DNA from: Macrocystis pyrifera
Lineage: Eukaryota > Sar > Phaeophyceae > Laminariales > Laminariaceae
Assembly (NCBI GenBank): GCA_031763025.1
Contig: JASSKH010000005.1
Coordinates: 4,296,092 to 4,360,091 of the forward strand
Length of the DNA stretch: 64,000 bases
Reading direction: 5' to 3'
A program made the position numbers and the translations under genes. Below, one piece after another: positions 24,035-42,539 of the stretch. Each line of letters opens with the position of its first letter. The first letter of the stretch is position 1. Below the pieces are notes generated by a model. It made no database searches and was not told the DNA's origin. It saw only the letters and a list, made by a program, of their open reading frames with translations.

Positions 24035-24200
24035 CAGGTGGCGTGGACATTGGGGCGCCGTGGGGGTTGCCATGACATGCCGTGAGGTTGCCATGGAGTG
24101 CTGTGGCGGTTGCGCCTCGGTGGTTGCCATGGTACCGCCCATGGCATGCCGGGCACCCCCCACGGCGTGACATAGAATCCTATGCCATGGTATGCCATGG

Positions 24201-24478
24201 TGTTAAGATATTGTCTTGAATGAGATTGAAAGCCCGGTAACTACCTGGGTTCAGTCACTGGGAACTTATTTGTAGTACTTGGAAGGCGTATCTTAGATGG
24301 AAAACCAGGGGTTTTCCAGAGGAACACGAGCTTGGTCTCAGTCTCCGCGTGCACGAAAGGAATAAAACTGCTCTTCTTCTACAGCTAAGCAAACAACACA
24401 TGTGAGTACAATGTTTACCGACTTAAAAGGCAGACCTGTCCATTGATACAAAGTGTCCCGCAACCCTTGATCTTAACA
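24201..24478 (+). repeat. 5' LTR
   Basis: Starts TGTTAAGATA and ends GATCTTAACA, so the ends form a 9-bp inverted repeat. It contains a 19-bp palindrome GGAAAACC-AGG-GGTTTTCC (24299-24317) and an AATAAA polyadenylation signal (24361-24366). It matches 37810-38079 except for about six substitutions and two indels. Confidence 0.95.
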
Positions 24479-24480
24479 AG

Positions 24481-24498
24481 TGGCGTCTTCGGCTTAGG
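24481..24498 (+). other. Primer binding site
   Basis: TGGCGTCTTCGGCTTAGG begins 2 bp after the 5' LTR and starts with the TGG that pairs with tRNA CCA. The same TGGCGTC follows the 5' LTR of the deletion derivative (42216-42220 side). The primer tRNA cannot be named from the sequence. Confidence 0.75.
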
Positions 24499-24592
24499 AT
24501 TTTCCGCTTTTTTGTCGGTTTGCGTTGTTTGTCACTGTTTTTTATTTGTTTGCTTTCCTATTGTTGTTGAGTAAGTTTTTTCCGGCCACTGC

Positions 24593-27500
24593 ATGATGGA
24601 GACTCAAGAGGTGGGAGGGTCTGCTTCCCCTCACGGTGGCCGAGCCGCTGAGGCCCAGGGCCCCTCAGTGCCCCACCGCCCAAGGCCCGTCGATGTGGAT
24701 CGAGCGCCTTGTGCAACAGACCAACAAGTAGAGTACGAGCCTAGGCAGGAGCCCCATCAGAACGACGTGGATCGAGCGCCTTGTACACCAAACCATGAGG
24801 AGAAAGAGCTTCGACCGGAGCCCCCTGACGGGGCCCGAGCAGCCTCTGCTAGACGGACCTCATCCAAGACCCCTTCTGTGCCTCGCGCGAGCTCTGCCGC
24901 CCAAGACAACAGGACGCCCCGCTCCTTCGAGAGCGCGACGCGCGCCACCAGCCAGGCCTTGGGTCTTGCAGCATTGTCTCCCCACTCGTGCCCTCTGCTG
25001 TCCAAGCCACCTGGAAGCCCCGCTCCGCTGAGCGCGTACCCAGCCAGCCCGTGGAGCCAGCTGCGTCTGCTCCGGGCCGGAGCACGTCGGACAAACCTGG
25101 ACGCAGCGACCTGGAGGCATCCTAGTTGCGCTCTGCGCCGCTGGATCTACCTGCTTCTGGGCCAGATGAGAGAGTATTTGAGACTGTTTTTCCGCCTCGC
25201 ATTCCACTGTTGTTCGACTCTGCTCGTACTCGTAGGATGACCACGCGTGATGTTGCCACTCCTGAATATTTTTTTTTCCGTGCCGCGGCCACACGATGGC
25301 ACACTGGATTTCGTTGTTGAGTCTGCTTCCCGCGCTGCTCTATTAGGAGCTACAAACAGAGTTCCTGGAAATTACAGTGCTGGTTCGAGTTTTCACGCTG
25401 CTGATAGCGGGAGCACCACGGCCGCTCGCGTAATTTTTCCCGCTCCTCGCCCACAAGATGGCACACTGGATTTCAGTATTGCGTCCTTTTCGCCCGCTGC
25501 TGTAACCACCCACGCCCGTTCCACTGGAAATTCCACTACTGATGCGAGTTTTAATACTGCTGTTAGTGAGGACGATGCTTTTGATAGGCCCCCCAGTACC
25601 GGAGTGCCCGCTACTGTGGCTACCCGCGGCGTTTCTGCTGAGAATTCTCGCCCTGATGCGAGTTTTAATACTGCTGTTAGTGAGGACGATGCTTTTGATA
25701 GGCCCCCCAGTACCGGAGTGCCCGCTACTGTGGCTACCCGCGACGTTTCTGCTGAGAATTCTCGTCCTGATGCGAGTTATAACACTGCTGCTGGAGAGGA
25801 CGAGAGAGGACGATGCTTTTGATAGGCCCTCCAGTACTGACGTGCCCACTGCTGTAGCTACCCGCGGCGATCCGGTCGATCATTCTCGTTCCGGTGCGAG
25901 TTTTACTACTGCTGCTCGAGTGGATGGTGTTTTTGATAGGCCCTCCAGTACCGACGTGCCCACTGTAGCTACCCGCGGCGATCCGGTTGAGCATTCTCGT
26001 TCCGATGCGAGTTCTAATCCTGTTGCTAGAGGGGACGAGGCTTTTGATAGGCCCTCCAGTATCGGGGACGCGCCAACACCAACTACACTTGCTGTTAGTA
26101 CGCATATAAACCGCGACAGCCGCCACCCTATCACGACACCACCTACGGTCGAGGCTCGCTCGTAGGGCCCGCCGACTGGCGCCCCAGGCCTTGATCACAG
26201 CTATACGAGTTGCTGAAGCACAAGCTGCAGCTCCTGCCGCCGCTGTTCCTACCCACCACGACCCTGAGAACCGCCATTTCCCGTCCTACCCCGCCTCGGT
26301 GTCCCCCCTGCCCCGGCGTCGCCCTTTGCCCTGGTGTTTTCCGCCCGCCCCGCCTCAGCATGTCACGGACAACGAAAGCATGGGAGGGATCACCCAGCCC
26401 CGCCAGGTCTTCCAGAGGCCTGAGGACTTACGGCTCCTCCCCCTCTTCGGGAGCGAGGACACCCGAGCCCGCGGGCCCCACGTCTCTGGACGACGCCGTG
26501 GGCTTCGAGCCCCTGGACTCAGAGGACGAGCGGCTGGCTACCGGGAAGGCTGCGGCACCGGCGGCCGAGGACCCGGGCAGTGCCCAGGCGCCCCCCCAAC
26601 TACCTGGGGCGTGGACCTCCCTCTCGCCACAGGAGCAGGCGGCGGTGATCCAGCGTTGGGCCAACCAGTCGAGCCTCGAAGCCGGGACAACCGCCGATCG
26701 CCCCGCGCCCGGCCAAGCCGACACTGTCACGGCCGCGCGGGCTCCTGATGCCACGGACACCCACCCCGACGTCCTCGCGGCCGAGCAGGCTTTGGCCTCC
26801 GCCGAGGCCCTTGGGGCTGCCTCGGCGACAACGGCTAGTCGTCGAGCGCGGACGCGTGTGTCGGCCGAGCTCGAGGCTGCAGCTGCTGCCGCCCGCGCCT
26901 CCACGGCCGCCGCCGCCATCGCCACGGCTGCCGCCACGGCTTCCGAGGAAGCCGCTCGCTCCGCCTCTTGTGCGCGAGACTCCATATCTCGGGCCAGTGA
27001 GGCGCTGCGGGCTGCCCGGGCGTCTGCTTCCTCCGCGACCAGCCGGGCCGGCGAGACGAGGGCCTCAGCGGAGAACCTTCCACTTGCCTCCTCCACCGCG
27101 AAGGCCGCTCCAGCCCCCGGCCTTGGCCGCACGGACCCGTGTTCCCCCGCTGTGCTCGCGATCGACGCCCGGACCAAGCGTCCCGGGGATCTGGACTTTT
27201 TGCAGGGGAGTGTCGCCTGCATGGCGGCCGAGCCCAACCCGTGCTTCCCCCCCGAGGAGGCGGCTCTGGTGGTCTCTGCAGCTGGCCGCCTCCGACGCGA
27301 GCTGCCGGCCGAAGGCCTCTCGGTCCACGACGCTTGGCTGGGAATGTCAGACGTCTCCTGGTCGGACCAACAGCTCCAGGCCTACACAATGGCTCTGGTG
27401 GTGAGCCTTCGGAGGGCCCATGAAGCGTCTTCCACCACGGTTCAATGGCCGAGACCGGCCGCGTACCAGCTTCATTGCAGGCGGCGGTCGCGCGCTGCCC

Positions 27501-28219
27501 CCCAGGACCCCCCCCTCTCTTACTCGATCCCGGAAGCTGGACATCGCCCCACCTCCTCCAGCGGTCACCGGGGAACTGGCGACAGCTCTGTGGCCGGAGA
27601 CCGCGCTCGCTGCCGCTCCGGCGACCAGGCCCGCCAGCGCACGAGGGTTGGAGGGGATCCGGCCGGTCCGGACGGCAGGCTCCGCCGGGGCTCGGGCGGG
27701 GAAACGGGTGGCAGTTCGTCTCGGCGCAACGGGACTGGACGGAGAAAAAACCGGTGGAAGGGGAAGGAGCGATCGGGTGACGGTCGGTAAGGCCCGCGGG
27801 ACGACTCTGGTCGAGCTACTTCCCCCAGCTCTTCCTCGGACGGCGACACCAGAGCCCCCGTTCCAGCGAAGCACGCCATCAGCAAGAGGCAAGTGATCCC
27901 CTCGCTGACTGAGGTTGCTTCTTCCGCCGCGCGTCTTGGTCGCTTGACCATGCCCGATGACCGCGCCTTGCCTGTGTCATCTAACCTTGCTCACGATCGA
28001 ACTTCGTCGATTGACTCCGCCGCCGCTGCCGCCGCGAAACAGCACGCTGCCGACGTACAACGGGCGTACAAACGCCTGGGACTGAAGGATATTTCGCGCA
28101 TTTCTGTCTTGCCTTTCCCCTCCTCGATCGACCCTTGCGAGGCCGCACAGCAACTCATGCGTTCGGTAAAGGCCTCCGCCTCTGATATTCTCATGATGTG
28201 CAACGATGGCAGCCAATAA
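24593..28219 (+). pseudogene. Gag-side region of the NADAR element (broken ORFs)
   Basis: The first ATG after the leader (24593) opens 215 codons of Pro/Ala/Arg-rich protein; the reading then continues in other frames. Recognisable parts are a 38-residue tandem repeat (25541-26110), an alanine-rich probable coiled coil (about 26760-27070, in the 526-codon ORF 26210-27790) and a stretch at 27893-28219 with a helical AKQHAADVQRAYKRLG segment. Frame breaks occur near 25200, 25800 (a 10-bp tandem duplication), 26165 and 27420. The position between the leader and the zinc knuckle argues for a Gag or pre-Gag role, but no capsid signature is obvious to me. GC-rich third positions create long antisense ORFs. 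Confidence 0.6.
25541..26110 (+). repeat. 114-bp (38-codon) tandem repeat in the gag-side region
   Basis: Units start near 25541, 25655, 25769, 25893 and 26004 with GATGCGAGTT or close variants, coding for DASFNTAVSEDDAFDRPPS and similar. The first two are almost identical. The third contains a 10-bp duplication (GAGAGGAC repeated) that lengthens it to 124 bp and shifts the frame. Confidence 0.92.
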
Positions 28220-28331
28220 GGCCTTAGTTCTACTAACTGGATCCCCGGTTGGGAGTACCCTCTCAAAAAATCCTTCGCGCGCGCCATCACGCCTGACAAG
28301 CCTACGACCGCCCCTCTCACTACCTTGATGG

Positions 28332-29524
28332 ATGATTTTTTTTGGACAGGTGTCGCGCGCCCTCGCAGCAGGATCGTCGGGACCGGAGGCGTTCACGCTC
28401 CTCCTGAGGTTGCTGAGCAACCACTTTGACCGCACCAACACGAGGGCCAGCTACACCAAGTTGCATAATTTTGGCGTGGCTAACGGGAGTCCTTTTTGCG
28501 ATTTTAGTCGTGCATTGCGAGGGGTGGTGTCCGCAGCGACGGAGACTGAGCGTGTTTTGGCACCGGGGGTGGAGGTCGTTTTGGAGGTACTTCGGATGGC
28601 AGTGAACGAGCAGTACCCTAGCTTGATGCCGACGCTGTACCCTGGAGTTGTGGCTACGGTATCGAGGCCGTTCGGCACTTTGGACGCCATGTGGTTAGCT
28701 TTCGAGACTCTTGCGAATAATAAGACACCTGCCGTCAACGGCGAAAAATATTTTTCTTTGCCTGCTTCTTTGACGGGTGCGCGGTCATCCGCCCCGTCGG
28801 GGCCCCGGCCCGCCAATATTGGTTGCGGCCAGGGCCGGACGCTTCCCCAGTCGCCTTCTTGGCAGACGGGATCGCGCAATAATCCGCTTGTGATGAACGT
28901 CCACAAATCCATCCCTGACTGCCTCGACCCGTGGCTTGACGCCTCTTCCAACTGCTGGCCCCTTGAAGAACACCACTATGCCGAAGTTCACGTCGTTTGC
29001 ATGTCCATCCAGACCGAGGACCCTCCCCTCTGGAGCGGCCTACTTTCATCGTCCGCTCGCGCAGCCGCCCTCAGCGAAAACCGAGGACGCTGTTTAAACT
29101 GTCACGAAGACACATACTCTCTTCGACAGTGTAGGCACCCCTTTTTAAACCTTAGTGGTATCTTGAACCCCGACCTCGGAACGCTCGGCGACAACGGCGA
29201 GGCGTTCCGTCGTTGGCAAGAACACATGAACACCGCCGCGAGAACAATTCACGACCGAACAAATACAACCAGAAGAAACACAGGCGTCGCCCCGGCCCCT
29301 CGCGTGGGCAACATCACGGCCAGGGTCAGCAACACAGACAAGGTGATGGCTACAACACACACGCGGCACGAGGACACCAGCAGTCTCACCCCGGCCATCA
29401 TGGTGGTTCGACCGCCCCTGCCTCTTCCGCCCCGGCTCCCGTCTCGGGGGTTCGCTACGGCGCCTCGCATACCTCGGGGCTGAAACCCGAATGGACGCCA
29501 GCCAGGCACCTTCCGCGCCGGTAA
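28332..29524 (+). pseudogene. Gag C-terminal half with zinc-knuckle nucleocapsid
   Basis: The 383-codon ORF 28332-29483 has a helical N-terminal part (LLLRLLSNHFDRTN...SYTKLHNF, then ALRGVVSAATETERVL) typical in character of a Gag capsid region, and at about 29089-29130 a knuckle C-x2-C-x4-Y-x4-C (CLNCHEDTYSLRQC). The third ligand is Tyr where CCHC knuckles have His; TAC for CAC is a single C-to-T change. After about 29215 the plausible product moves to the next frame (to the stop at 29524), giving a basic tail rich in Arg, His, Gln and Gly, as expected for an RNA-binding nucleocapsid. So one frameshift separates knuckle and tail in this copy. Confidence 0.75.
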
Positions 29525-29590
29525 CTGACAGGTCGACGGCGGTTCGGCTTCTCCTGACCGCCCGCCGCCAGCATTGTCAGGAGAAAAACC

Positions 29591-31984
29591 TTGATTTCAC
29601 AAGATGCTCGCGTCCCAGGCTCGCTCAGTACTCCGCTCCCGCCCCGCGCGTTACTCCGTATTTCGGACCGACGCAGCGACTCAGCTCCACAGTTTTTTCC
29701 GGGGAGCCCTCGGGCGCCTTCCCCGACGTCAGGAGCCCGCGCCTCAAACGCGGCTCCCCTCAACCTGGGCACGAGAGCAGGCGCGATAAACGCCTCTCTC
29801 CCAAACCACGCACCGCGCAACACGACGGGTGTCTCGCCGTCGCGTCGTTTTTTTCAGCGAGGGTGTCCCCCTCCTACACCTCCCGGCCATGCGGTGGCGG
29901 TCGGTTTGAGGTGCGGGAAGGCAAACACCGAAACCCCGAGATCTCGGTTGAAGCTCGACTCGGCATTTCCTCGCAATAACGGTGGCCGCTCCACCCTTTT
30001 TCCTATTAAGGAGGAGTCGACAAGATTAGCTACCTCGTCCCCCTTCCCCACCAGGTCTACAGGACGGAAGCCCTCTCCGGTGGACCCTTTGTTGCCCCCC
30101 ACCCGAGCACCGTTCTTGAAGACGTCTATAGGGTCTGCAGGCCCTCTTTCGTCTTCGCGCACGCCACTCCACGGGCGCAGCGCTCCTTCAGCTCCAGTGG
30201 AACAGGAAAACCCTGGCACTGTCCGTCGAGCCAGTGGTGACTCCACGGCCTCCGGTCAGATCAACCGGACAGCATACCCGTTAAATTCGGAAGAATCGCA
30301 GCTCTCGTCAAGTAGAACGGGCTCAGAGCCTCCTGCCCCCTTTGGTCCAGGACAGAGATCATCGGGCGCAGCAAGAGAACCTTCTGGCGATTTTTTGCCT
30401 ACGGGCAATGGTGACACAGAGCCAGTATACGTGGAACCGGACTCGTCTCGTGCACCAGGGTCTCAGTGTTCTCAGAGAAGCACACTCCCCCCCCCACACG
30501 CCGCAACTGCGGCCACCGACGACTCGGCACCGTCGGTTTTTGACCCTACTCTCGAGTATACAACGGAGCGGGTGGTACTGTTCTGGCAGCCCCCCTATTA
30601 TTTTTCGCAGTGTTCCCCCTCGTCTTTTGTCGTCGACGATGTATCGTATTCCTGCGCGGAGCAGTATATGATGGCTGAAAAGGCTCGCCGTTTCCAGGAC
30701 CACGGCACAGCGGAGCGGATTATGGCCTCGCCAGACCCACGCGAGCACAAACGCCTCGGTCGAGGCGTGCATAACTTCGACCGCGCTATCTGGGACCGTG
30801 TTCGGGAAGACGCCGTCCTTGCTGGGAATTTTGCCAAATTCTCGCAGAACCCGGTCGTGAAGCAGCACCTATTGAGCACTGGCGCCAAAATTTTGGCTGA
30901 AGTCAGCCCTTTTGATGCCGTGTGGGGCATCGGTTTGCGGGCAGACGACCCCGAAGCTCACGACCCCTCTCGGTGGCGTGGAAAAAACTTGTTCGGTAAA
31001 GCTTTTTCCGCCGTTCGCGATACCCTCCGATCAAGTGAGGCCGGGTTGGCACACCCCGCCTCCTCTCACCAATTTTGCACCCCATCCAGACCTAACAGAA
31101 TTCATGAGATTACACCAGCGCCGCCCCGCCCATTGGCCGTGGCCCGCGCTTGCCCAGGTCCTCCTTTGGAGTTTTCGACCTATCTGTCTGACGCGCCGGC
31201 TGATCACAGCCCGGAGATTTTGGCTGTCGCACCTAGGGTCGACTCCTCCCTCGCGCTGCCAGAACATGGCCCCTGCCTCGTCGGGGGCACCATTACCCTC
31301 GATGACGCCTCGTTTACAACGAAAATCGCCATTCACAGCGGAGCTGGCGTTCTTGCACCTTTTGGTTGCGTGGCGCTTCTCGACACTGGCTCCCCGCAGA
31401 CTTTCATCCGACGAGATGTTTTGGATCGCATGCACTCGGTTGGTGCGGCCTCCCTCGCGTGCGAGCAGAAAGGCGCCCCTCGTTCTTGGGGGGGGTTTGG
31501 CGAATCGGCCCCTCTGAAGACTTCGACGAGTGTGTGCCTGAGCGTCCAATTTGTTCGAGAAAATGAGCCTACTTGCTCCCTCGCAGTTTGGGCCTGCGTG
31601 GTCCCCCCCTCGGTAATGCAGCATGCTGTACCATTGGGACGTGACAGCTGGATGCGCTTTAATAGCCGCTCCTACCGCTCTCTGCCACCTCGGCCGGCTG
31701 ATCAACGCGTTTTTGGCGAGCTGAAGTTAGTTCACCACGCCCCGACAGGCATGTCCGTGTACGCCATCGACTCCGCCGCTTCGGGTGGAGGCTTCCATCT
31801 ACGCTACGAGGGCGCAGCAGGCGTCCCCCTGTCAGACGATCCCCACCTGCTTGCTGTTAATTTGGTTCGAAGCGATGGCTCCCCGGCCCTCACTGGACAC
31901 TACTTGGTCGACATGATGCTCCAGCCCGACCTACCCTCGGTCGAGGAGCACTTCGTCTCCTCCGGACGACAGTTCTTCCCCTAG
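29591..31984 (+). CDS. NADAR domain fused to retroviral-type aspartic protease
   Basis: This 797-codon ORF is uninterrupted. Residues 1-325 are Ser/Pro/Arg-rich and probably disordered. Residues about 331-481 form a complete NADAR (YbiA/DUF1768) domain: it starts at F331, has the CAEQYMMAEKA segment with E357, the LGR turn, the KFSQNPVVKQHLLSTG helix, SPFDAVWGIGL with W445, and WRGKNLFGKAF at 462-472, followed by VRDTL. These are the family's conserved positions. Residues about 560-700 are a retropepsin-like protease with the catalytic LLDTGSPQTF (D598-T599-G600). NADAR proteins elsewhere are N-glycosidases acting on ADP-ribose-type or riboflavin-pathway substrates; in one toxin-antitoxin type they remove ADP-ribose from guanine in nucleic acid. 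The role here is inferred only. A frameshift just before the stop (31982-31984) separates it from the RT ORF. Confidence 0.92.
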   Translation: MISQDARVPGSLSTPLPPRALLRISDRRSDSAPQFFPGSPRAPSPTSGARASNAAPLNLGTRAGAINASLPNHAPRNTTGVSPSRRFFQRGCPPPTPPGHAVAVGLRCGKANTETPRSRLKLDSAFPRNNGGRSTLFPIKEESTRLATSSPFPTRSTGRKPSPVDPLLPPTRAPFLKTSIGSAGPLSSSRTPLHGRSAPSAPVEQENPGTVRRASGDSTASGQINRTAYPLNSEESQLSSSRTGSEPPAPFGPGQRSSGAAREPSGDFLPTGNGDTEPVYVEPDSSRAPGSQCSQRSTLPPPHAATAATDDSAPSVFDPTLEYTTERVVLFWQPPYYFSQCSPSSFVVDDVSYSCAEQYMMAEKARRFQDHGTAERIMASPDPREHKRLGRGVHNFDRAIWDRVREDAVLAGNFAKFSQNPVVKQHLLSTGAKILAEVSPFDAVWGIGLRADDPEAHDPSRWRGKNLFGKAFSAVRDTLRSSEAGLAHPASSHQFCTPSRPNRIHEITPAPPRPLAVARACPGPPLEFSTYLSDAPADHSPEILAVAPRVDSSLALPEHGPCLVGGTITLDDASFTTKIAIHSGAGVLAPFGCVALLDTGSPQTFIRRDVLDRMHSVGAASLACEQKGAPRSWGGFGESAPLKTSTSVCLSVQFVRENEPTCSLAVWACVVPPSVMQHAVPLGRDSWMRFNSRSYRSLPPRPADQRVFGELKLVHHAPTGMSVYAIDSAASGGGFHLRYEGAAGVPLSDDPHLLAVNLVRSDGSPALTGHYLVDMMLQPDLPSVEEHFVSSGRQFFP

Positions 31985-32111
31985 TTGGAGTGGCGGCTCT
32001 CGAGCCGGGGGATGTGCTCGGCGTCGCCCACGCCCCACTGCAGAGCGTTCCGCTGGACGTTTTGCAGCAGGACAACCGAGCCCCCAGCCCTCCCTCCGGA
32101 CTAGGTGAGGT

Positions 32112-33908
32112 GTGTCCGGTTTCAGCAGTTACTCCCCCCCCCCCCCCGTCGCAGCTCCAGCCTCGCCCTCGCCTGCGCTGCTTGAGCGTTTGACCTCAGA
32201 ACAGCGCGCTTCGTTCCTGCGCATCTGGGCACGCTTGCCGGCACATCTGGGGGAGGTGGCTTTTGATCTCCACGGCACAGGCTGGACCCCTGCGGTCATT
32301 GAACAGCTGGGGGACGTTCTCTGCGAATTTCCTGACGTTTTCTCAAAGTCCAAGTCGGAGTTTGGTTCCTGCTCGTTGATGCCTTTCGTGATCTCGGTCC
32401 CGGAAGGAAGCGCTCCTGTCACGTCCAGGCCGCACCGCATCAATCCCATCCTGGCCAAGGAAGTGGAGGCCACCTTAGATCAGTACCTAGCGGCTGGTCT
32501 GATCCAGCACTCGACTTCTCCGTACTCGAGCCCGCTGGTGGTCATCCCGAAGAAGTCTGGAGGTGTTCGGATCACCGTGAACTACAAAAAACTCAACCAG
32601 ATCAGCAAACTGAGCCAGCTGCCTATCCCTCGCGTGCACCAAGTCCTCGACTCCCTGGGGAAGGGACGGATGTTTTCCCTCTTCGATTTGGTCTCCTCGT
32701 TCCACCAGATTACCGCGCACAAGGACACCGTCCCTCTTACGGCGTTCTGCACTCCCACGGGCCTTTACGAGTGGCTCGTCATGCCCCAAGGCAGCAGTGC
32801 TTCGCCCGCCTGGTTCGTCAAAGTGATTAACGAAGTCATTAAAGGCCTGGCACAGGTGGTGGCCTACCTTGATGATGTGATCGTTTTCGAATCTGACCCG
32901 ACGGCCCACGTCAAGACAATACGAGCCCTCTTCGAACGCCTGCGCAAACACAACCTCAAGCTCTCCCCCTCGAAGGCTCGCCTCGGCGCCACGGACGCCA
33001 ATTTTCTGGGCCACTATATTTCGCCCGCGGGTATAAGCCCTAATGCGGACAAAGTTTCGGCCTTGCTGAAAATGCCCATGCCCAAGAACCTCAAGCAGGT
33101 CCGCGCCCTGATGGGCGGCGTAGGATACTATCGCAAATTCCTGCCCGACCTGTCTAAACGGATACGTCCTCTCACCGCCCTTCTCCGGAAGGGGGTCAAG
33201 TATGTCTTCACGCCGGCTATGGAAGTTATCGTCCGCCAGATCCTCGCCGAGCTCGCGGCCCCACCGACTTTGGTCTTCCCTGACTGGGATGCCGTAGTCG
33301 ACGGCTCCCGCCCCTTCCACGTGTACTGCGACGCCTGCATCGACCGTTTCGGTGCCGCGCTCGAACAAGAACAACCGCACGGCTCGGTACGGCCCATTGC
33401 TTATATCAGCCGCGCTACCCTCGATTCCGAAAGGCACCGTACACCGTTGGACCTGGAAGCTGGCAGCATTGTCTGGGCTATCAAACGACTCCGAGGTTAC
33501 CCGTGGGGCACGAAGTTTCGAATATTTTCGGATCACAAAGCACTTGAGAGTATCGCCAAAGTAGGGGACCACAACGCGCGAGTCCAGCGGTGGCTCGAGT
33601 TCCTCACCGCGTTCGACTACACCCTCGAGTACCGCAAGGGCAGCGCCAACGGAAATGCTGACTTTCTCTCCCGCTTGCCAGAGCCCGCCACAGAACACGA
33701 CCGCAGTGGGTCTAGCTGCCTCAACCCCGTCGAGGACGGTGGTATTCCTCATCCGGGCCTGCGGGTTTCGCACTCGCTCTTCGCCGACCCCTGGTGTCGG
33801 TTTAGGTGGGCTGGCGTCCCGCAGTGGAAGTGCCGTCTTGGGTGGGCTACCTCTCGCCTCTTCGGATTTTCGCGATTTTCGCACACACGGGCCACGTATG
33901 AGGATTGA
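32112..33908 (+). CDS. Reverse transcriptase and RNase H
   Basis: The 598-codon ORF holds an N-terminal linker (LLERLTSEQRASFLRIWARL), then RT from about residue 105: STSPYSSPLVVIPKK, FSLFDL with catalytic D192, LTAFCTPTGLYEW, and Y252-L253-D254-D255. The connection (NFLGHYISPAGISPNADK) and RNase H follow, with HVYCDACIDRFGAAL (D407) and FSDHKALESI, ending in the YRKGSANGNADFLSRLP signature around 33620-33680. The first codons overlap a run of 14 C at 32134-32147, across which the upstream coding (31990-32130) is in another frame, so the true domain start is upstream of the listed ATG. The last 70 codons after about 33740 read the wrong frame; the repeat region that follows continues in the frame opened at 33655. 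Confidence 0.93.
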   Translation: MSGFSSYSPPPPVAAPASPSPALLERLTSEQRASFLRIWARLPAHLGEVAFDLHGTGWTPAVIEQLGDVLCEFPDVFSKSKSEFGSCSLMPFVISVPEGSAPVTSRPHRINPILAKEVEATLDQYLAAGLIQHSTSPYSSPLVVIPKKSGGVRITVNYKKLNQISKLSQLPIPRVHQVLDSLGKGRMFSLFDLVSSFHQITAHKDTVPLTAFCTPTGLYEWLVMPQGSSASPAWFVKVINEVIKGLAQVVAYLDDVIVFESDPTAHVKTIRALFERLRKHNLKLSPSKARLGATDANFLGHYISPAGISPNADKVSALLKMPMPKNLKQVRALMGGVGYYRKFLPDLSKRIRPLTALLRKGVKYVFTPAMEVIVRQILAELAAPPTLVFPDWDAVVDGSRPFHVYCDACIDRFGAALEQEQPHGSVRPIAYISRATLDSERHRTPLDLEAGSIVWAIKRLRGYPWGTKFRIFSDHKALESIAKVGDHNARVQRWLEFLTAFDYTLEYRKGSANGNADFLSRLPEPATEHDRSGSSCLNPVEDGGIPHPGLRVSHSLFADPWCRFRWAGVPQWKCRLGWATSRLFGFSRFSHTRATYED

Positions 33909-34824
33909 CGACCTCTCTGCTCCTTCGGGGAGATTCGTCGCTCGTGTATCTGCCTCCGTCGCCACCGTCGACCGCCGTCCTGGCTTGGGGGATTTTTCAA
34001 CCCCCGCCAACGCCGCTTTCGCTTCGGTTTTTGTCGTACCCTCCGTGGGCGACCAGGGCTCTTCAGATGCCCCCGCTGCAGCGACGTTCGTCGCCCAGCG
34101 CGCTCCTCCCCCGACGAGCACTTTACAGGGAAAAGATTCCGTCGTGAGCACTGCTCTGGCCGTATCTTCCCTCTCAGGCCAGGGCTCTGCAAAAGCCCCC
34201 GCTGCAGCGATGATTGTCGCCCAGCGCGCTCCTCCCCCGACGAGCACTTTACAGGTCGAAGATTCCGTCGTGAGCACTGCTCCGGCCGCGTCTTCCCTCT
34301 CAGGCCAGGGCTCTGCAAAAGCCCCCGCTGCAGCGATGATTGTCGCCCAGCGCGCTCCTCCCCCGACGAGCACTTTACAGGTCGAAGATTCCGTCGTGAG
34401 CACTGCTCCGGCCGCGTCTTCCCTCTCAGGCCAGGGCTCTGCAAAAGCCCCCGCTGCAGCGATGATTGTCGCCCAGCGCGCTCCTCCCCCGACGAGCACT
34501 TTACGGGTCGAAGATTCCGTCGTGAGCACTGCTCCGGCCGCGTCTTCCCTTTCATGCCAGGGCTCTGCAGAAGCCCCCGCTGCAGCGACGATTGTCGCCC
34601 AGCGCGCTCCTCCCCCGACGAGCACTTTACAGGGAAAATATTCCGCCGTGATCACTGATCCGGCCGCGTCTACCCCATCGCCGCCTGGCAACCCGGCGCC
34701 TCCGAACGTTTTGCGGTCTTCAGGCCGCATCTCATCGCGGACGCGCCGACGAACAGCCGCCGCCGCTGGCGCCGTGCCGCCTGCTGTTGAGTATGGCTTC
34801 GAGCCCGGCGGGACCCCTAGATAA
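33655..34824 (+). CDS. Proline/alanine-rich linker between RNase H and integrase
   Basis: The coherent part begins about 33740 and is a low-complexity Ser/Ala/Pro-rich polypeptide. Its core is five units of 42 residues (34056-34680), each with APAAA, VAQRAPPPTSTL and SVVSTA segments; the middle three units are nearly identical. It ends in a basic SRTRRRTAAAAG stretch and a TAG at 34822-34824. Such an insertion between RNase H and integrase is not a standard Ty3/gypsy part. It may be a flexible tether or a substrate for the protease; there is no domain resemblance. Confidence 0.6.
   Translation: MLTFSPACQSPPQNTTAVGLAASTPSRTVVFLIRACGFRTRSSPTPGVGLGGLASRSGSAVLGGLPLASSDFRDFRTHGPRMRIDDLSAPSGRFVARVSASVATVDRRPGLGDFSTPANAAFASVFVVPSVGDQGSSDAPAAATFVAQRAPPPTSTLQGKDSVVSTALAVSSLSGQGSAKAPAAAMIVAQRAPPPTSTLQVEDSVVSTAPAASSLSGQGSAKAPAAAMIVAQRAPPPTSTLQVEDSVVSTAPAASSLSGQGSAKAPAAAMIVAQRAPPPTSTLRVEDSVVSTAPAASSLSCQGSAEAPAAATIVAQRAPPPTSTLQGKYSAVITDPAASTPSPPGNPAPPNVLRSSGRISSRTRRRTAAAAGAVPPAVEYGFEPGGTPR
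34056..34680 (+). repeat. 126-bp (42-codon) tandem repeat, five units
   Basis: Successive GCAAAAGCCCCCGCTGCAGC starts at about 34191, 34317 and 34443 give an exact 126-bp period. The first (from about 34056) and the last (to 34680) units are more diverged; the middle units differ by one or two bases. The near-identity points to recent expansion or replication slippage. Confidence 0.95.
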
Positions 34825-34887
34825 TCACCCCGGCGCGCTACCACCCCGCTGCGAGCCCCACGGCCACGACCGCCCGCACCCGGCGTT

Positions 34888-36603
34888 TTGGCCCCGACTC
34901 CTGCCGCCTCGTCCGTCCCGACGGTACCCATCCCGTCCGGCCGCGACCGCACCGAACCCGTGGGAACTCCTCTGTTACGACTTCCGCCGCCAACTGACAC
35001 ACCTCCCGTCACCTCGACCGACTTGGACGCACTCGGCGCAGCTGCCGAGTTTCAGTTTGGTGATTCCGCAGCGCGCTATTCGCACGCCGACTGGGCTCGG
35101 GAACAACAGACTGAGCCCGCGTGCAATGCCACCATGCGCTACATAGCCCTTGGCCAACCGGACGTTTTGCCAGACGACTTTTTATCAGGTTTCCCTTCCC
35201 ACCAGCGCCCTCCCCTCTCGGAAGTTCAAGAGCTGGCCACCAAAGGCCGCTTGCACGCCACTGACGCGGGCATCGTTCTACTTGTCCGACAGCCGTCTCC
35301 CCTTCCTGCGTTGGATACACCACGCCCGGTGGGCCGTACGGCCTGCTTACTGAACGACGAGCCTATTCGCATTTATGTTCGGCTACTCATGCGCCCCTGG
35401 GTCATGCAGGCTTGCCATTCTACGGCTTCCTGCCACCTAGGAACCGCGCGCACCCTACGTATGCTCGAACGTTTCTACTGGTGGTTCGGCTTGAGCATCT
35501 GCACCCGGTGGTGGCTACGCAACTGCTTAAAGTGCCAGGCACGGAAAACGTCGCGGCAGACGGTCCGGTGGCCCTCCATCACGTTGCCTTTGCCAGAAGG
35601 GCCCGGCATCGCCGTCAGCATCGACTATTTCGGCCCCCTCCCGGTGACGCCTCGAGGTAATACCTACATCTTGCTTTTCACTGATCGTTTCAGCCGCCGA
35701 GCTGACATGTACGCCGTCACAGCGGCAGAGTTCACCGCTGAGGGCACGGCTAACATTCTCATCAACCGGTATATCCCTCTTTGGGGGTGCCCGCGCAGCA
35801 TCCTCTCGGACAACGGCCTCCAGTTCTGCTCCAAGCTTTCGCACGCCGTATATCAGCTTCTCGGGGTTCAAAAAACTGCCACCAGCTCCTACCACCCAAA
35901 CGGCAACGGTGGGGTGGAACGTGTAAACCACACGATGGCCCAGATGTTGGAAATGGTCGTCAACGAGCTCCAAAACAAGTGGGATGAACAGCTCCCTCAC
36001 GTCGAATTTGGGTACAACAATTCCGTCAGTGCCGCCACGGGTCTGGCTCCCAACGAGGTACATATGGGTCGGCTCCTATGCCTCCCACTCACGATTTTCG
36101 AACGTGCAGGAGTCGCCGGCCACCAGAGCTTGGCCCGCGACCATCTTGCCTACTGCGACTTGGCGACGGACCGCCAGCAGCGCGCGTACGACATCGTTCG
36201 AGAACACCACGCCCTCACTGTCGCTCGCGTGAACCGCCGCGACTCCGCCCTCTCCGACGCTCTGCGTCCGGTCCCCAAATTTGACGTTGGTGGTTGGGTG
36301 TGGGTGTACAATACGGCGGCCACCATCCGCCAGGGCGCGAAACCAGACACGAACGCCAAGGTCCTCAAGGCCAAACTCTCCCTCAACTGGACGGACCCCT
36401 ACAAAGTTTTCGCAGTTGGCCCCTGCTCCTCTGCGGACACCCCGGATGGATCTCCTCTCGGAGCAAAGCTCTCCTGTATTTGGATCTTCCTTCCGATATG
36501 CCCGGCGCCGAGGCTCGCCGGCGCGTATCTGTTCAACGCTGCAAGACCTGTGCCAACCCCCGCGACCGTGACGACATGCCGAAGTATTTGCCGGCGGGGT
36601 TGA
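34888..36603 (+). pseudogene. Integrase
   Basis: The 571-codon ORF holds a zinc-binding domain with H-x5-H (ACHSTASCHLG) and C-x2-C (NCLKCQARK), then the catalytic core with D246 (SIDYFGPL), D308 (LSDNGLQF) and E344 (GGVERVNHT), giving the canonical D,D(35)E spacing. The fold then continues through the EQLPHVEFGYN strand and a GPY-like region (WTDPYKVFAVGP). After about 36465 a 2-bp insertion (CTCTCC) shifts the frame, and the true C-terminus continues in the frame of 36294-36800. The listed ATG follows a stop at 34822-34824 that cuts it off from the linker. The core itself is intact. Confidence 0.9.
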
Positions 36604-37280
36604 CGCAATACGTGCTCAACAATTTCTCCAAGAAATCTTCTCCGTACCACGTCACCGAGGACGACGTTTCGACCCCTCTTGAACGACTCGAAGTGGAAAA
36701 GATTACTGGACATCAATCGGTTCGAGGTCGAGGTGGCGTCATCGCGGTGATGTACGAGACGCACTGGAAGGGACTTTCCCGGCCATCTTGGGAACGGTAA
36801 ATGGACCTTCAGCTTTCTCGCCACGCAATTTTGCGCTACTGGGCCGGCACCCCGAACCAACACCGCCAAACCAACCGCCTGTATCGCCGAATGAGAATTG
36901 GCGCGGCACAACGGGAGCTTTCCCGGAGTAACGGCGAGCGGTTTCTAGCACCCGGTTATGGTTGCGTATCGCACGCCAATTGGCTCCGCCGATACAGCAA
37001 CACTGTACTTCCCAACGGGGCCCACGTTTGGTACAAGGGCGACGACGGTCTGTGGTGGCTCGGAACAATCAGCGCAACTACACCGACGGATGGAGTACAT
37101 TTGGTTCGATGTTTGGACGACCCGGGACCAATCAAGCTTCCACTTTCTCCGGCGCGCTACACGACTTCGACGAGAGCTGTACGAGGTTCTTGGTGTCTGC
37201 AAATTCACTTGGCTAGCGCGTTTATACGGGGGGTCCAGCGTAACGTAGATGAATCACGAGGTGCCGCCGTGGATAGCTGA
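36471..37280 (+). pseudogene. Integrase C-terminus: chromodomain followed by Tudor-like domain
   Basis: The frame runs from about 36471 to an in-frame TAA at 36798-36800 and continues in the same frame to 37280. Around 36670-36850 lies a chromodomain-like segment: PLERLEVEKITGH, then GGVIAVMYETHWKGLSRPSWER, and after the stop DLQLSRHAILRYWAG as the C-terminal helix. At about 37024-37160 a small barrel-like segment follows: GAHVWYKGDDGLWWLGTI, VHLVRCLDDPGPIKLPL and ARYTTS. Its pattern of W-x-G-x-I and a V-R-x-L-D-D strand resembles Tudor/Agenet-type histone readers. Chromodomain identity is well supported by position; the Tudor-like call is an inference from pattern. Confidence 0.7.
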
Positions 37281-37809
37281 ATTTCCCGTCTTGACTGCAC
37301 TCGTTATTTAGTTATTTTTGTCGTCTTCCTGGGTCTTGGGGGATGATTTTTTGTCTGCCCGATATGTTTCTGGTGTGTTTTCTTCTTTTTTTTTAACTGG
37401 GTTGGGGATGTGGTTTTGCGTATTCTGTCCTGCCCCCCCCCCCCCCCGCTCGGTGTTGGGACGCGCTTCAGAGTGGTAGACTGGGTATAGGTGGTTCTTG
37501 TCGTCCTCCGTGTTATTTTTATTTTTGTTCCCGTACGTACTTTTCGCTTTTCCGTGCATCTTCCTCGCCCCCCCCCCGTGCGGGCGGTATGGCGATGGCT
37601 TTCATCGACGATTTCTTCCTGCCCCTTAAGGCTAAGTCTTCCCTTTGTTTTTTTTTACGTACTTTCCCGGCTTCGTTGCCTCGCCGTTCAGAGGTGTGGG
37701 AGTGGGTTTTGAGGAGCCGCATCTTCGACTCATGTTCTAGTTCGTGGAATCGGGGTTTCCACGAATTTCCCATAATTCTGCATATACGGCTCATCAGAGT
37801 GGGCTAGTG
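37281..37809 (+). other. 3' untranslated part of the NADAR element
   Basis: T- and C-rich DNA with two C runs (37434-37447 and 37570-37578) lies between the last pol codon and the 3' LTR. The final 220 bp, ending CATCAGAGTGGGCTAG directly before the LTR, are conserved in the derivative at 41134-41350. No long polypurine tract is present; AGAGTGGGC is the best candidate. Confidence 0.7.
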
Positions 37810-38079
37810 TTAAGATAATGTCTTGTATGAGATTGAAAGCCCGGTAACTACCTGGGTTCAGTCACTGGGAACGTATTTGTAGTACTTGGAAGGCGTATCT
37901 TAGATGGAAAACCAGGGGTTTTCCAGAGGAACACGAGCTTGGTCTCAGTCTCCGCGTGCACGAAAGGAATAAAAAACTGCTCTTCTTCAGCAAACAACAC
38001 ATGTGAGTACAATGTTTACCGACTTAAAAGGCAGACCTGTCCAGGGACACAAAGTGTCCCGCAACCCTTGATCTTAACA
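37810..38079 (+). repeat. 3' LTR
   Basis: Begins TGTTAAGATAATG and ends ATCTTAACA. AATAAA lies at 37968-37973. Relative to the 5' LTR it lacks about 10 bp near the TTCTTC run and has two extra A in the AATAAAAAA stretch. The 4-bp ATGG after it (38080-38083) repeats the one before the 5' LTR. Confidence 0.95.
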
Positions 38080-38083
38080 ATGG

Positions 38084-40856: not shown

Positions 40857-41133
40857 TGTTAGGATCAGCGTCGGGACACTTTGTATCCCTGGACAGGTTG
40901 CCTATTAAGTCAGTACTCGTTGGTACTCATGTGTGTTGTTTGCTTAGAGATAAAAGAAAAGTCGCTTCACTCCTTTCGTGCACGCGGAGACTGAGAGCCA
41001 AGCTCGTGCCTCGCCGGGAATATCCCTGCTTTTCCATCTACGATACGCCTCCCAAGTACTACAAATACGATCTCAATACTTGAATCCAGGTATATACCGG
41101 GATTTCAGCCTCATTCAAGGAAGTATCATAACA
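40857..41133 (-). repeat. 3' LTR of the deletion derivative
   Basis: On the + strand it starts TGTTAGGATC and ends ATCATAACA. It is the reverse complement of the LTR type seen at 24201-24478, including the GGGAATATCCCTGC...TTTTCCATCTA region. Confidence 0.9.
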
Positions 41134-41477
41134 CTAGCCCACTCTGATGAGCCATATATATATGCAGAGTTTTGGGAAGTTCATGGAAACCTCGACTCCA
41201 CGAATTGCAACATGAGTCGAAGGTGCGGCTCCTCAAAACCCACTCCCACACCTCTAAACGGCGAGGTAACGAAGCCGACAAGGTACGTCGAATAAAAACA
41301 ACGCAAGGAAGGCCTAGCCCTAAGGGGCTGGAATAAATCGTCAACGAAAGTCATCGTCATGCCACCCGCAACGGGGGGGAGGGCGAGGAAATTTCATGGA
41401 AAAGGGAGAAGTGAATACCAAAAACGAGAAGAAAAATAACACGGAATACTCCAAGAACCACCTAAACCCAGCCAACG

Positions 41478-42200
41478 TTAAGTTTGAGGACTGGATGCAG
41501 AGCGTCGGAGAGGGCGGAGTTGCGGCGATTCGCGCGAGCAACAGTGAGGGCGTGGTGTTCGCCAACGATATCGTACGCACGCTGCTGGCGGTCCGTCGCC
41601 AAGTCGCAGTAGGCGAGGTGGTCGCGGGCCAAGCTCTGGTGGCCAGCGACTCCAGCACGCTCGAAACTCGTGAGAGGGAGGCGTGGCAGCCGACCCATAT
41701 GGACCTCGTCGGGAGCCAAACCCGTGACGGCACCGACGGAATTGCTTTGTACCCAAATTCGACATGAGGGAGCTGTTCATCCCAGGTTTTTTGGAGCTCG
41801 TTGACGACCATTGCCAGCATCTGGGCCATCGTGTGGTTTCTACGTTCCACTCCACCGTTGCCGTTTGGGTGGTAGGAGCTGGTGGCCATTTTTGGACCCC
41901 GAGAAGCTGATTAACGGCGTGCAAATACATGGAGCAGAACTGGAGGCCGTTCTCCGAGAGGATGCTGCACGGGCACCCCCAGAGGAGAATATTCCGGTTG
42001 ATGAGAATGTTAGCTGTGCCCTCAGCGGTGGACTCAGCCGTTGCGACGGCGTACATGTGGGCTCGGTGGCTGAAACGATGGGTAAAAAGCAGCAAGATGC
42101 AGGTATTTCCTCGAGGCGTCAGCGGGAGAGGGCCGAAATCGAGGCTGACGGCGATGCCGGGCCCCTTTGGCAAAGGCAACGTGATGGTAGGCCATCGCAC
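41478..42200 (-). pseudogene. Integrase core fragment
   Basis: Reads from TLPLPKGPGIAVSLDFGPL through the HRFSHRAHMYAV strand to ILSENGLQFCS, then shifts frame; the remainder (HPNGNGGVERRNHTMAQML) is in the frame of 41341-41889. The zinc-binding domain is absent. The second catalytic residue is Glu where the large element has Asp (SENG for SDNG), so the core would be inactive even without the frameshift. Confidence 0.85.
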
Positions 42201-42222
42201 CGTCCTGCCGTCGACGCCACTT

Positions 42223-42498
42223 GTTAAGATCAGGGTCGGGATACTTTGTATCCCTGGACAAGTTGCCTAGTAAGTCCGTACTCGTTGGTACTCACGTGTG
42301 TTGTTTGCACAGAGACTAAAGAAGAGCAGCTTTGTTCCTTTCAAGCACGCGGAGACTGAGAGCCAAGCTCGTGCCTCGCTGGGAAAATCCCTGGTTTTCC
42401 ATCTACGACACGCCTGCCAAGTACTAAACAAAAGATCCCAATACTTGAATCCAGGATATTACCGGGATTTCAGCCTCATTCAAGGCAGCTTCATAACA
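42223..42498 (-). repeat. 5' LTR of the deletion derivative
   Basis: On the + strand starts TGTTAAGATC and ends TTCATAACA. The primer binding site TGGCGTC lies 2 bp inside it (complement at 42214-42220). Confidence 0.9.
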
Positions 42499-42539
42499 GT
42501 GGCGTTTGGGTTCATTCTTTTAAGGAAACAAAAAACGTC

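What the first reader, a model, noticed from the sequence alone, without database searches (positions are those of the whole stretch)
29591..31984. NADAR domain embedded in the protease polyprotein of a Ty3/gypsy retrotransposon
Seen: one uninterrupted 797-codon ORF contains a full NADAR domain (residues about 331-481, with E357, SPFDAVWGIGL and WRGKNLFGKAF) followed by a DTG aspartic protease, inside an element with matching LTRs and target duplication. Known: NADAR proteins are N-glycosidases; one bacterial/phage class reverses ADP-ribosylation of guanine in nucleic acids, another acts in riboflavin metabolism. Inference: the element may use it to strip ADP-ribose from its RNA, cDNA or integration site, that is, to counter a host ADP-ribosylation defence, or to act on NAD-type caps. 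I know of no standard Ty3/gypsy element with this domain, though earlier domain surveys may have noted it.
Basis: partly seen in the sequence, partly recalled or inferred. Interest (0 to 1): 0.92.

Follow-up and report, generated by a model that had tools for sequence, protein, structure and literature searches.

The report
Kelp retrotransposon carrying an ADP-ribose-removing enzyme
A family of jumping genes in a brown alga (giant kelp) carries, between its shell protein and its protease, a conserved domain whose best-studied relatives remove ADP-ribose from DNA; the fusion is real and long kept, but the same kind of element was already described in the brown alga Ectocarpus.

Summary
ORF 29591-31984 (+) contains a full NADAR domain (Pfam E 6.7e-48) followed by a retropepsin-fold DTG protease, inside a 13.9-kb LTR element with ATGG target duplications. 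The genome is almost certainly giant kelp (Macrocystis pyrifera). It is no one-off: of 60 kelp copies sampled by their protease, 57 have nearly all of NADAR upstream, 2 its last third, 1 none. At least four public polyproteins read NADAR-PR-RT-RNaseH-integrase in one ORF. Across lineages NADAR is as conserved as the protease (PR 46.5 / NADAR 50.9%; 82.9 / 82.7%); its flanking linkers are less so. Active-site columns are nearly invariant, the fold matches an ADP-ribose-bound NADAR, and an RT tree fits one gain. So it most likely encodes a working ADP-ribosyl-guanine hydrolase released with Pol. Substrate and any host defence are untested; no DarT match was found in the kelp, and within the window's young subfamily selection on NADAR is not significant. 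Dinatale et al. [quoted passage not shown] New here: the kelp family, selection and single-gain evidence, related stand-alone algal genes, and a multi-copy kelp derivative without RT that keeps NADAR and PR.

The parts
24201..24478 (+). 5' LTR (278 nt)
24197..24200 (.). target duplication ATGG, left copy
28332..29483 (+). gag-like ORF (383 aa) with a knuckle-like CLNCHEDTYSLRQC at 29091-29132; the relative P0287 has a canonical CX2CX4HX4C upstream of its NADAR
   Evidence: no Pfam match; gag by place and motif only
29591..31984 (+). 797-aa ORF: N-part without Pfam match, NADAR, linker, aspartic protease
30581..31030 (+). NADAR domain (residues 331-480); E357, K364, K387, R391, W401, E437, D442, W445 correspond to E43, K50, K75, R79, W89, E125, D130, W133 of the Phytophthora NADAR (8BAU)
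   Evidence: the chain index minus 2 gives the paper's numbering, all 13 named residues agreeing
31268..31981 (+). aspartic protease region (DTG at 31382-31390), retropepsin fold
32112..33908 (+). RT (about 32544-33017) and RNase H (about 33306-33614) ORF, not in frame with NADAR-PR in this copy
33927..34808 (+). 126-bp tandem repeats between RNase H and integrase
34888..36603 (+). integrase ORF (H2C2 about 35389-35550, core about 35602-35898)
36690..36779 (+). weak chromodomain-like match (E 0.033, below cut-off)
37808..38079 (+). 3' LTR (272 nt)
38080..38083 (.). target duplication ATGG, right copy

Best explanation
A Ty3/gypsy lineage of brown algae once acquired a YbiA-type NADAR gene at the Gag-Pol boundary and kept it as the first domain of Pol. 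Shown: the fusion, its fixed place in the family, the intact active site in most members, and conservation across lineages equal to the protease. Inferred: the protease releases NADAR inside the particle, where it acts as an N-glycosidase that strips ADP-ribose from guanine (or a related ADP-ribosyl adduct) in the element's RNA or single-stranded cDNA, so that reverse transcription is not blocked. This would be a sanitising enzyme, comparable in place and logic to the dUTPase between NC and PR of some retroviruses (comparison from recall). Whether the adduct is damage or a host defence is open.
For: Pfam NADAR E 6.7e-48. AlphaFold model pLDDT 93.7; best structural match 8BAU, the Phytophthora NADAR with ADP-ribose (Foldseek E 2.0e-12, TM 0.80), then YbiA. 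57 of 60 protease-sampled kelp copies have nearly all of it, 2 part. Among 54 non-redundant family NADARs (mean pairwise identity 0.61) all 13 positions that the paper names around ADP-ribose have mean top-residue frequency 0.891 against 0.740 for all 152 columns (permutation p 0.001); eight of them, picked by me, reach 0.962 (p 5e-5). NADAR identity tracks PR identity while the linker falls to 19%. NADAR-to-PR spacing is 231-250 aa in 14 of 15 measured polyproteins. In an RT tree the 14 NADAR rows kept (25 before collapse) lie in one clade (SH-aLRT 98) with other Gypsy outside. In the sections read, every wild-type NADAR tested reversed guanine ADP-ribosylation on model DNA, including an oomycete one (PMC11543638 sections 9 and 12; PMC11125620 section 4 part 1).
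Against: No assay. Within the window's young subfamily shared variants show no significant purifying signal in NADAR (variants in 4 or more copies N/S 10:9 against singletons 124:45, p 0.066; all shared p 0.18), although PR (p 5e-5) and RT-RNase H (p 3e-11) do (the first run, included some non-homologous stretches and gave p 0.17 for NADAR). No DarT match found in the kelp, one PARP fragment. YbiA and a phage NADAR cleave guanine-ADPr in vitro yet do not protect cells from DarT1 (PMC11125620), so the physiological substrate cannot be read from the fold. Two contact positions (D86, R93 of 8BAU) are not conserved.
Confidence: 0.5

Rival explanations
1. The domain is an active ADP-ribose-processing enzyme, but its target is soluble (NAD-derived signals, ADP-ribose derivatives, NAD-type RNA caps or by-products of RNA repair) or protein-bound, not guanine in nucleic acid.
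For: Proposed for viral NADARs, with soluble derivatives favoured for phages and macromolecules for RNA viruses, in PMC9503650 (passages). The residues kept here bind ADP-ribose itself, so other ADP-ribosyl N-glycosides could fit.
Against: The activity shown on macromolecules for tested NADARs is on guanine-ADPr. The place between Gag knuckle and PR puts it with the element's nucleic acid (inference).
Confidence: 0.2
2. The domain works without catalysis, as an RNA- or cap-associated binding module for packaging the genomic RNA.
For: [quoted passage not shown] NADAR1 of SNA-3 lacks the catalytic residues.
Against: The catalytic E, K and E positions are kept in 92-96% of non-redundant family rows, and changing the corresponding residues in SNA-3 NADAR2 and NADAR3 impairs it.
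Confidence: 0.12
3. Passenger: a captured gene fragment with no role, kept only because it sits in the Pol frame.
For: Non-significant selection signal in the young window subfamily; 27 of 60 copies have a full open NADAR.
Against: Conservation equal to PR across lineages down to about 46% identity, linkers less conserved; active-site enrichment; kept in a multi-copy RT-less derivative.
Confidence: 0.1
4. A metabolic role as in YbiA: removal of riboflavin-pathway intermediates.
For: N-glycosidase activity on riboflavin intermediates is cited for some NADARs in PMC9303266 and PMC9503650 (passages).
Against: No evident need for it in a retrotransposon; Pfam shows no riboflavin enzyme in the element's ORFs searched.
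Confidence: 0.04

Closest known systems
Ectocarpus NADAR Gypsy lineage, e.g. Gypsy-12_Ec32 (Dinatale et al. 2025, PMC12477816)
   Same: [quoted passage not shown] C-terminal chromodomain reported there, weak chromo-like match here.
   Different: Another species (kelp). That paper suggests possible horizontal acquisition, its hits being almost all bacterial; here the family NADARs also group with stand-alone brown-algal genes (99/90 in one tree, unresolved in another).
Phytophthora nicotianae NADAR (PDB 8BAU)
   Same: Fold and ADP-ribose site; YbiA-type glutamate (E125 = E437).
   Different: Not part of a retroelement polyprotein in the paper's account; 30% identity in the structural alignment; D86 not kept, R93 kept in only about half of the family.
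Stand-alone NADAR genes P0008, P0043 (Ectocarpus), P0029 (Pylaiella), P0067 (Scytosiphon), P0015 (unnamed EukProt source)
   Same: Nearest cellular relatives in one tree; 52-57% identity to the window domain for the three compared.
   Different: Proteins of 209-252 aa with NADAR as only Pfam family over its cut-off; four of five with an N-terminal Cys/His-rich segment (seen by eye); no protease.
NADAR in polyproteins of RNA viruses (nidoviruses, hepe-like, picornaviruses; PMC9503650)
   Same: NADAR embedded in a replicase polyprotein.
   Different: RNA viruses; about 20-22% identity for yellow head virus type proteins.
Tx1 LINEs of Crassostrea gigas with NADAR in ORF1 (reported in PMC12477816)
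   Same: Retrotransposon with NADAR.
   Different: Non-LTR element with a divergent NADAR; not tested here.

Membership tests
NADAR superfamily (PF08719) | significant full-length profile match | tested here: met
   E 6.7e-48, profile positions 2-163 of 163
NADAR superfamily (PF08719) | NADAR/YbiA fold | tested here: met
   AF2 pLDDT 93.7; 8BAU and 2B3W are the two PDB matches at E <= 0.001
YbiA-type NADAR | glutamate at the E125 position (D in BC4488 type, H in phage type, per PMC11543638) | tested here: met
   E437; E in 49 of 53 non-redundant family rows
Guanine de-ADP-ribosylase | hydrolysis of guanine-ADPr | not testable with these tools
   no assay
Ty3/gypsy LTR retrotransposon | LTRs, target duplication, PR-RT-RNaseH-integrase order | tested here: met
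   RT tree places it among Gypsy-type polyproteins
Ty3/gypsy LTR retrotransposon | retropepsin with D[TS]G | tested here: met
   DTG present; fold match to FIV protease E 1.4e-4 on a model of modest confidence; Pfam not significant
Ectocarpus NADAR Gypsy lineage | NADAR at N-terminal region of Pol | tested here: met
   named Ectocarpus polyproteins P0272, P0287, P0302, P0303 lie in the same RT clade. Identity with Gypsy-12_Ec32 itself was not tested
Ectocarpus NADAR Gypsy lineage | C-terminal chromodomain | tested here: inconclusive
   E 0.033, below cut-off
DarT1-NADAR toxin-antitoxin system | adjacent DarT ADP-ribosyltransferase | tested here: not met
   no DarT match in the six-frame genome search (the control rang in 1 of 14 genomes)

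The most novel reading that the evidence does not exclude
Brown algae restrict retrotransposons by ADP-ribosylating guanine in their RNA or cDNA, and this Gypsy lineage carries a packaged guanine de-ADP-ribosylase, derived from the alga's own NADAR gene, as counter-defence; RT-less derivatives keep the gene because it is needed in cis.
Probability: 0.2. Interest if true: 0.88.

Novelty: new member of a known kind. Interest (0 to 1): 0.5.

Why it matters
It supports an enzyme of nucleic-acid de-ADP-ribosylation as a lasting part of a retrotransposon. If it is active, the open question whether eukaryotic cells ADP-ribosylate invading nucleic acid becomes directly testable: assay the domain, look for guanine-ADPr in kelp or Ectocarpus nucleic acid, and look for the transferase that makes it.

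Tried and rejected
One-off host-gene insertion: rejected (57 of 60 copies with nearly all of NADAR, 2 partial). The one copy without it, L175, and the two partial ones, L127 and L148, lose similarity to the family altogether upstream of the break, so they look truncated or rearranged rather than cleanly lacking NADAR. NADAR swap inside the window's subfamily: suggested by low BLAST identity of L131, L137 and L154, rejected because nucleotide identity across the domain is about 93-98% in 150-nt bins; indels caused the low values. Two independent captures: the second kelp type (L177) pairs with P0132 (98/95) apart from the others in the NADAR tree, but one clade is not rejected (AU p 0.445; 0.611 with the stand-alone genes; 0.37 and 0.405 in the larger set). 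Origin in the alga's own gene: a 67-row tree gives family plus stand-alone algal genes 99/90 and a FastTree of 221 rows SH 92, but a 70-row tree with added family rows leaves that region unresolved; direct bacterial origin is not excluded and the direction between gene and element is open. An ART beside the near bacterial NADARs: neighbours of L012, L014, L019 were listed as ORFs only, not searched; nothing concluded. NADAR-less relatives: P0285 has a full PR with 262 residues upstream and no NADAR; P0284 and P0289 also have long upstream parts without NADAR, but their PR lacks its start, so missing exons or deletions are possible.

Prior-art searches: NADAR + retrotransposon, 'NADAR domain', NADAR + brown alga, YbiA + transposable element, NADAR + LINE + Crassostrea. 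Among the titles listed, PMC12477816 was the one on the point; I saw its passages on NADAR and part 1 of 2 of its section 5, not its supplements.

Rows dropped before counts: one search kept 54 of 121 rows (120 proteins and the window) with both domains nearly full length, many of them close kin, so the pairs are not independent; one search kept 54 of 128 NADAR rows (length, then 90% collapse; two Haliotis proteins left out beforehand); searches use 60 copies plus the window (one search left out L175; one search masked badly matching stretches, over 300 nt in 14 of 60 copies). The 60 copies are 60 of the 154 protease matches, from near the top, so they lean to well-kept copies. Of the 120 proteins listed (156 hits), 104 had NADAR and PR by BLAST, 14 lacked NADAR and had PR starting within 128 residues of their own start, 2 (Haliotis) had NADAR without PR.

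Full report
What is there. The window lies in a 537,376,219-base, 223-contig genome. The published giant kelp assembly has 537 Mb, 35 scaffolds plus 188 contigs and N50 13,669,674 (PMC10498591, passages), and contig C196 here is 13,669,674 bases long, so the host is almost certainly Macrocystis pyrifera. At 24201-38079 sits an LTR element of 13,879 bases: LTRs of 278 and 272 nt (266 of 282 alignment columns identical, 10 of the other 16 gaps), ends TGTTAAGAT/ATCTTAACA, and ATGG on both sides. In order it has a gag-like ORF with a knuckle-like motif, the 797-aa ORF with NADAR and protease, RT with RNase H, 126-bp tandem repeats, integrase, and a weak chromodomain-like match.

Identity of the domains. 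NADAR matches Pfam with E 6.7e-48. Its model has pLDDT 93.7, and the two PDB matches at E <= 0.001 are the Phytophthora NADAR with ADP-ribose (E 2.0e-12, TM 0.80) and E. coli YbiA. By the phmmer alignment and the residue roles in PMC11543638 section 12, E43, K50 and E125 are E357, K364 and E437 here; K75, R79, W89, R93, D130 and W133 are kept in the window; Y84 is F396; D86 is R398. E437 puts it in the YbiA type. The protease carries LLDTGSPQ; Pfam sees only a weak Ty3 peptidase match (E 0.22), but a model of modest confidence matches FIV protease (E 1.4e-4).

A family trait, not an accident. The 150 NADAR places scored in the genome (best of 1264 candidates) pass the Pfam cut-off. To avoid sampling by NADAR I searched with the protease (154 matches listed) and fetched 60 of them: 57 of 60 have at least 133 of 152 NADAR residues upstream at about the same distance, 2 only the last third, 1 none; the last three lose similarity to the family altogether upstream. 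Many copies are decayed: 27 of 60 have a full open NADAR, 11 of 60 NADAR and PR open together, 1 of 60 NADAR through RT. Among public proteins, 104 of the 120 listed relatives of the NADAR-PR stretch (156 hits) hold both. A search with the RT-RNase H of P0141 listed 120 of 234 hits; P0241, P0242, P0244 and P0279 read NADAR, PR, RT, RNase H and integrase in one protein, and Ectocarpus proteins such as P0272 combine NADAR, RT, RNase H and integrase without a recognised PR. NADAR was found in 38 of those 120; most of the rest start downstream of its place or are other Gypsy elements. NADAR-to-PR spacing is 231-250 residues in 14 of 15 measured cases. P0285 has a full PR with 262 residues upstream and no NADAR, and lies just outside the NADAR clade in the RT tree (SH-aLRT 98; 24 rows: 14 NADAR, 10 undetermined). 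P0284 and P0289 also lack NADAR but have an incomplete PR. One gain fits; it is not proven.

Selection. Across 54 rows, mean NADAR identity follows PR identity by bins (PR/NADAR 46.5/50.9, 52.2/53.7, 65.9/66.1, 77.4/79.6, 82.9/82.7, 92.5/92.2). In four rising PR bins (gaps counted) the NADAR-PR linker stands at 19, 36, 56 and 75% and the 100 residues upstream (35 rows) at 15, 48, 65 and 74%, below PR and NADAR in each. Among 54 non-redundant NADARs the 13 positions named around ADP-ribose have mean top frequency 0.891 against 0.740 overall (p 0.001); eight of them, chosen after the first look, 0.962 (p 5e-5). Against this, in the window's young subfamily the contrast of shared and singleton variants is not significant for NADAR (4 or more copies N/S 10:9, singletons 124:45, p 0.066; all shared p 0.18) while it is for PR (12:22, p 5e-5) and RT-RNase H (10:36, p 3e-11); linker and upstream part are not significant either (which corrects by masking non-homologous stretches). 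The deep record says function; the recent record of this subfamily is weaker than for PR and RT. The window copy has rare residues at conserved positions and is frame-broken between PR and RT, so it is a relic.

A second kelp family. L177-L186 are ten copies of another NADAR type, nine of them nearly identical. One copy continues into a homologous protease and then jumps from the RT N-terminus to the RNase H C-terminus (read by eye). All 40 scored DNA matches (of 526 candidates) span this junction over the whole 240-nt query at 98-100% identity, and 25 of the 40 have a call-7 NADAR 1827-1891 bases away. So a young derivative in at least 40 places lacks RT but keeps, where checked, NADAR; PR was seen in one copy. 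It must take RT from elsewhere. Its NADAR is 51% identical to that of P0132 although their proteases are 76% identical, unlike other pairs; fast change or replacement are both open.

Origin. The nearest cellular relatives are stand-alone NADAR genes of brown algae (Ectocarpus, Pylaiella, Scytosiphon, and one unnamed) and genes of myxobacteria and planctomycetes. A 67-row tree joins the family with the stand-alone algal genes at 99/90, a 70-row tree does not resolve this, and AU tests reject none of the groupings tried. Dinatale et al. suggested possible horizontal transfer, citing bacterial hits; descent through an algal gene is a fair alternative, not proven.

Mechanism. In the sections read, wild-type NADARs hydrolyse guanine-ADPr on DNA and not thymine-ADPr, including an oomycete one outside any DarT operon (PMC11543638, PMC11125620). 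I therefore think the domain is a working N-glycosidase released by the element's protease and acting on ADP-ribosyl adducts of the element's nucleic acid; its place beside Gag and PR suggests action in the particle. The adduct's maker is unknown: no DarT match, one PARP fragment and three Macro matches were found. Counter-defence remains a guess.

Novelty. The NADAR-Gypsy fusion is in print for Ectocarpus (passages and section 5 part 1), where the role was called unclear and RNA processing proposed. This is a new member of that kind in another brown alga. Additions here: prevalence sampled without NADAR, selection and active-site evidence, single-gain evidence, the algal stand-alone relatives, and the RT-less derivative.

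Noticed in passing
L177-L188 (G000:C48:78320-80900 and others): Multi-copy kelp derivative of the lineage without RT and most of RNase H that keeps NADAR (25 of 40 junction copies paired with a NADAR hit) and, in the copy read, PR.
   Followed up: partly
window 40857-42503: What looks like a second, degenerate related element on the minus strand: two 282-nt LTR-like copies (87%) and an integrase piece inverted relative to 35672-36290.
   Followed up: no
P0132 and L179+L187: Proteases 76% identical but NADARs only 51%, unlike other pairs where the two values are close.
   Followed up: partly
window 33927-34808: 126-bp tandem repeats between RNase H and integrase.
   Followed up: no
P0234, P0238 (Haliotis): Abalone proteins of about 450 aa with two NADAR domains; not close to the kelp family.
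   Followed up: no
window 36801-37280: ORF after the chromo-like match with a VWYKGDDGLWWLGTI stretch that looks Tudor-like by eye (not tested).
   Followed up: no
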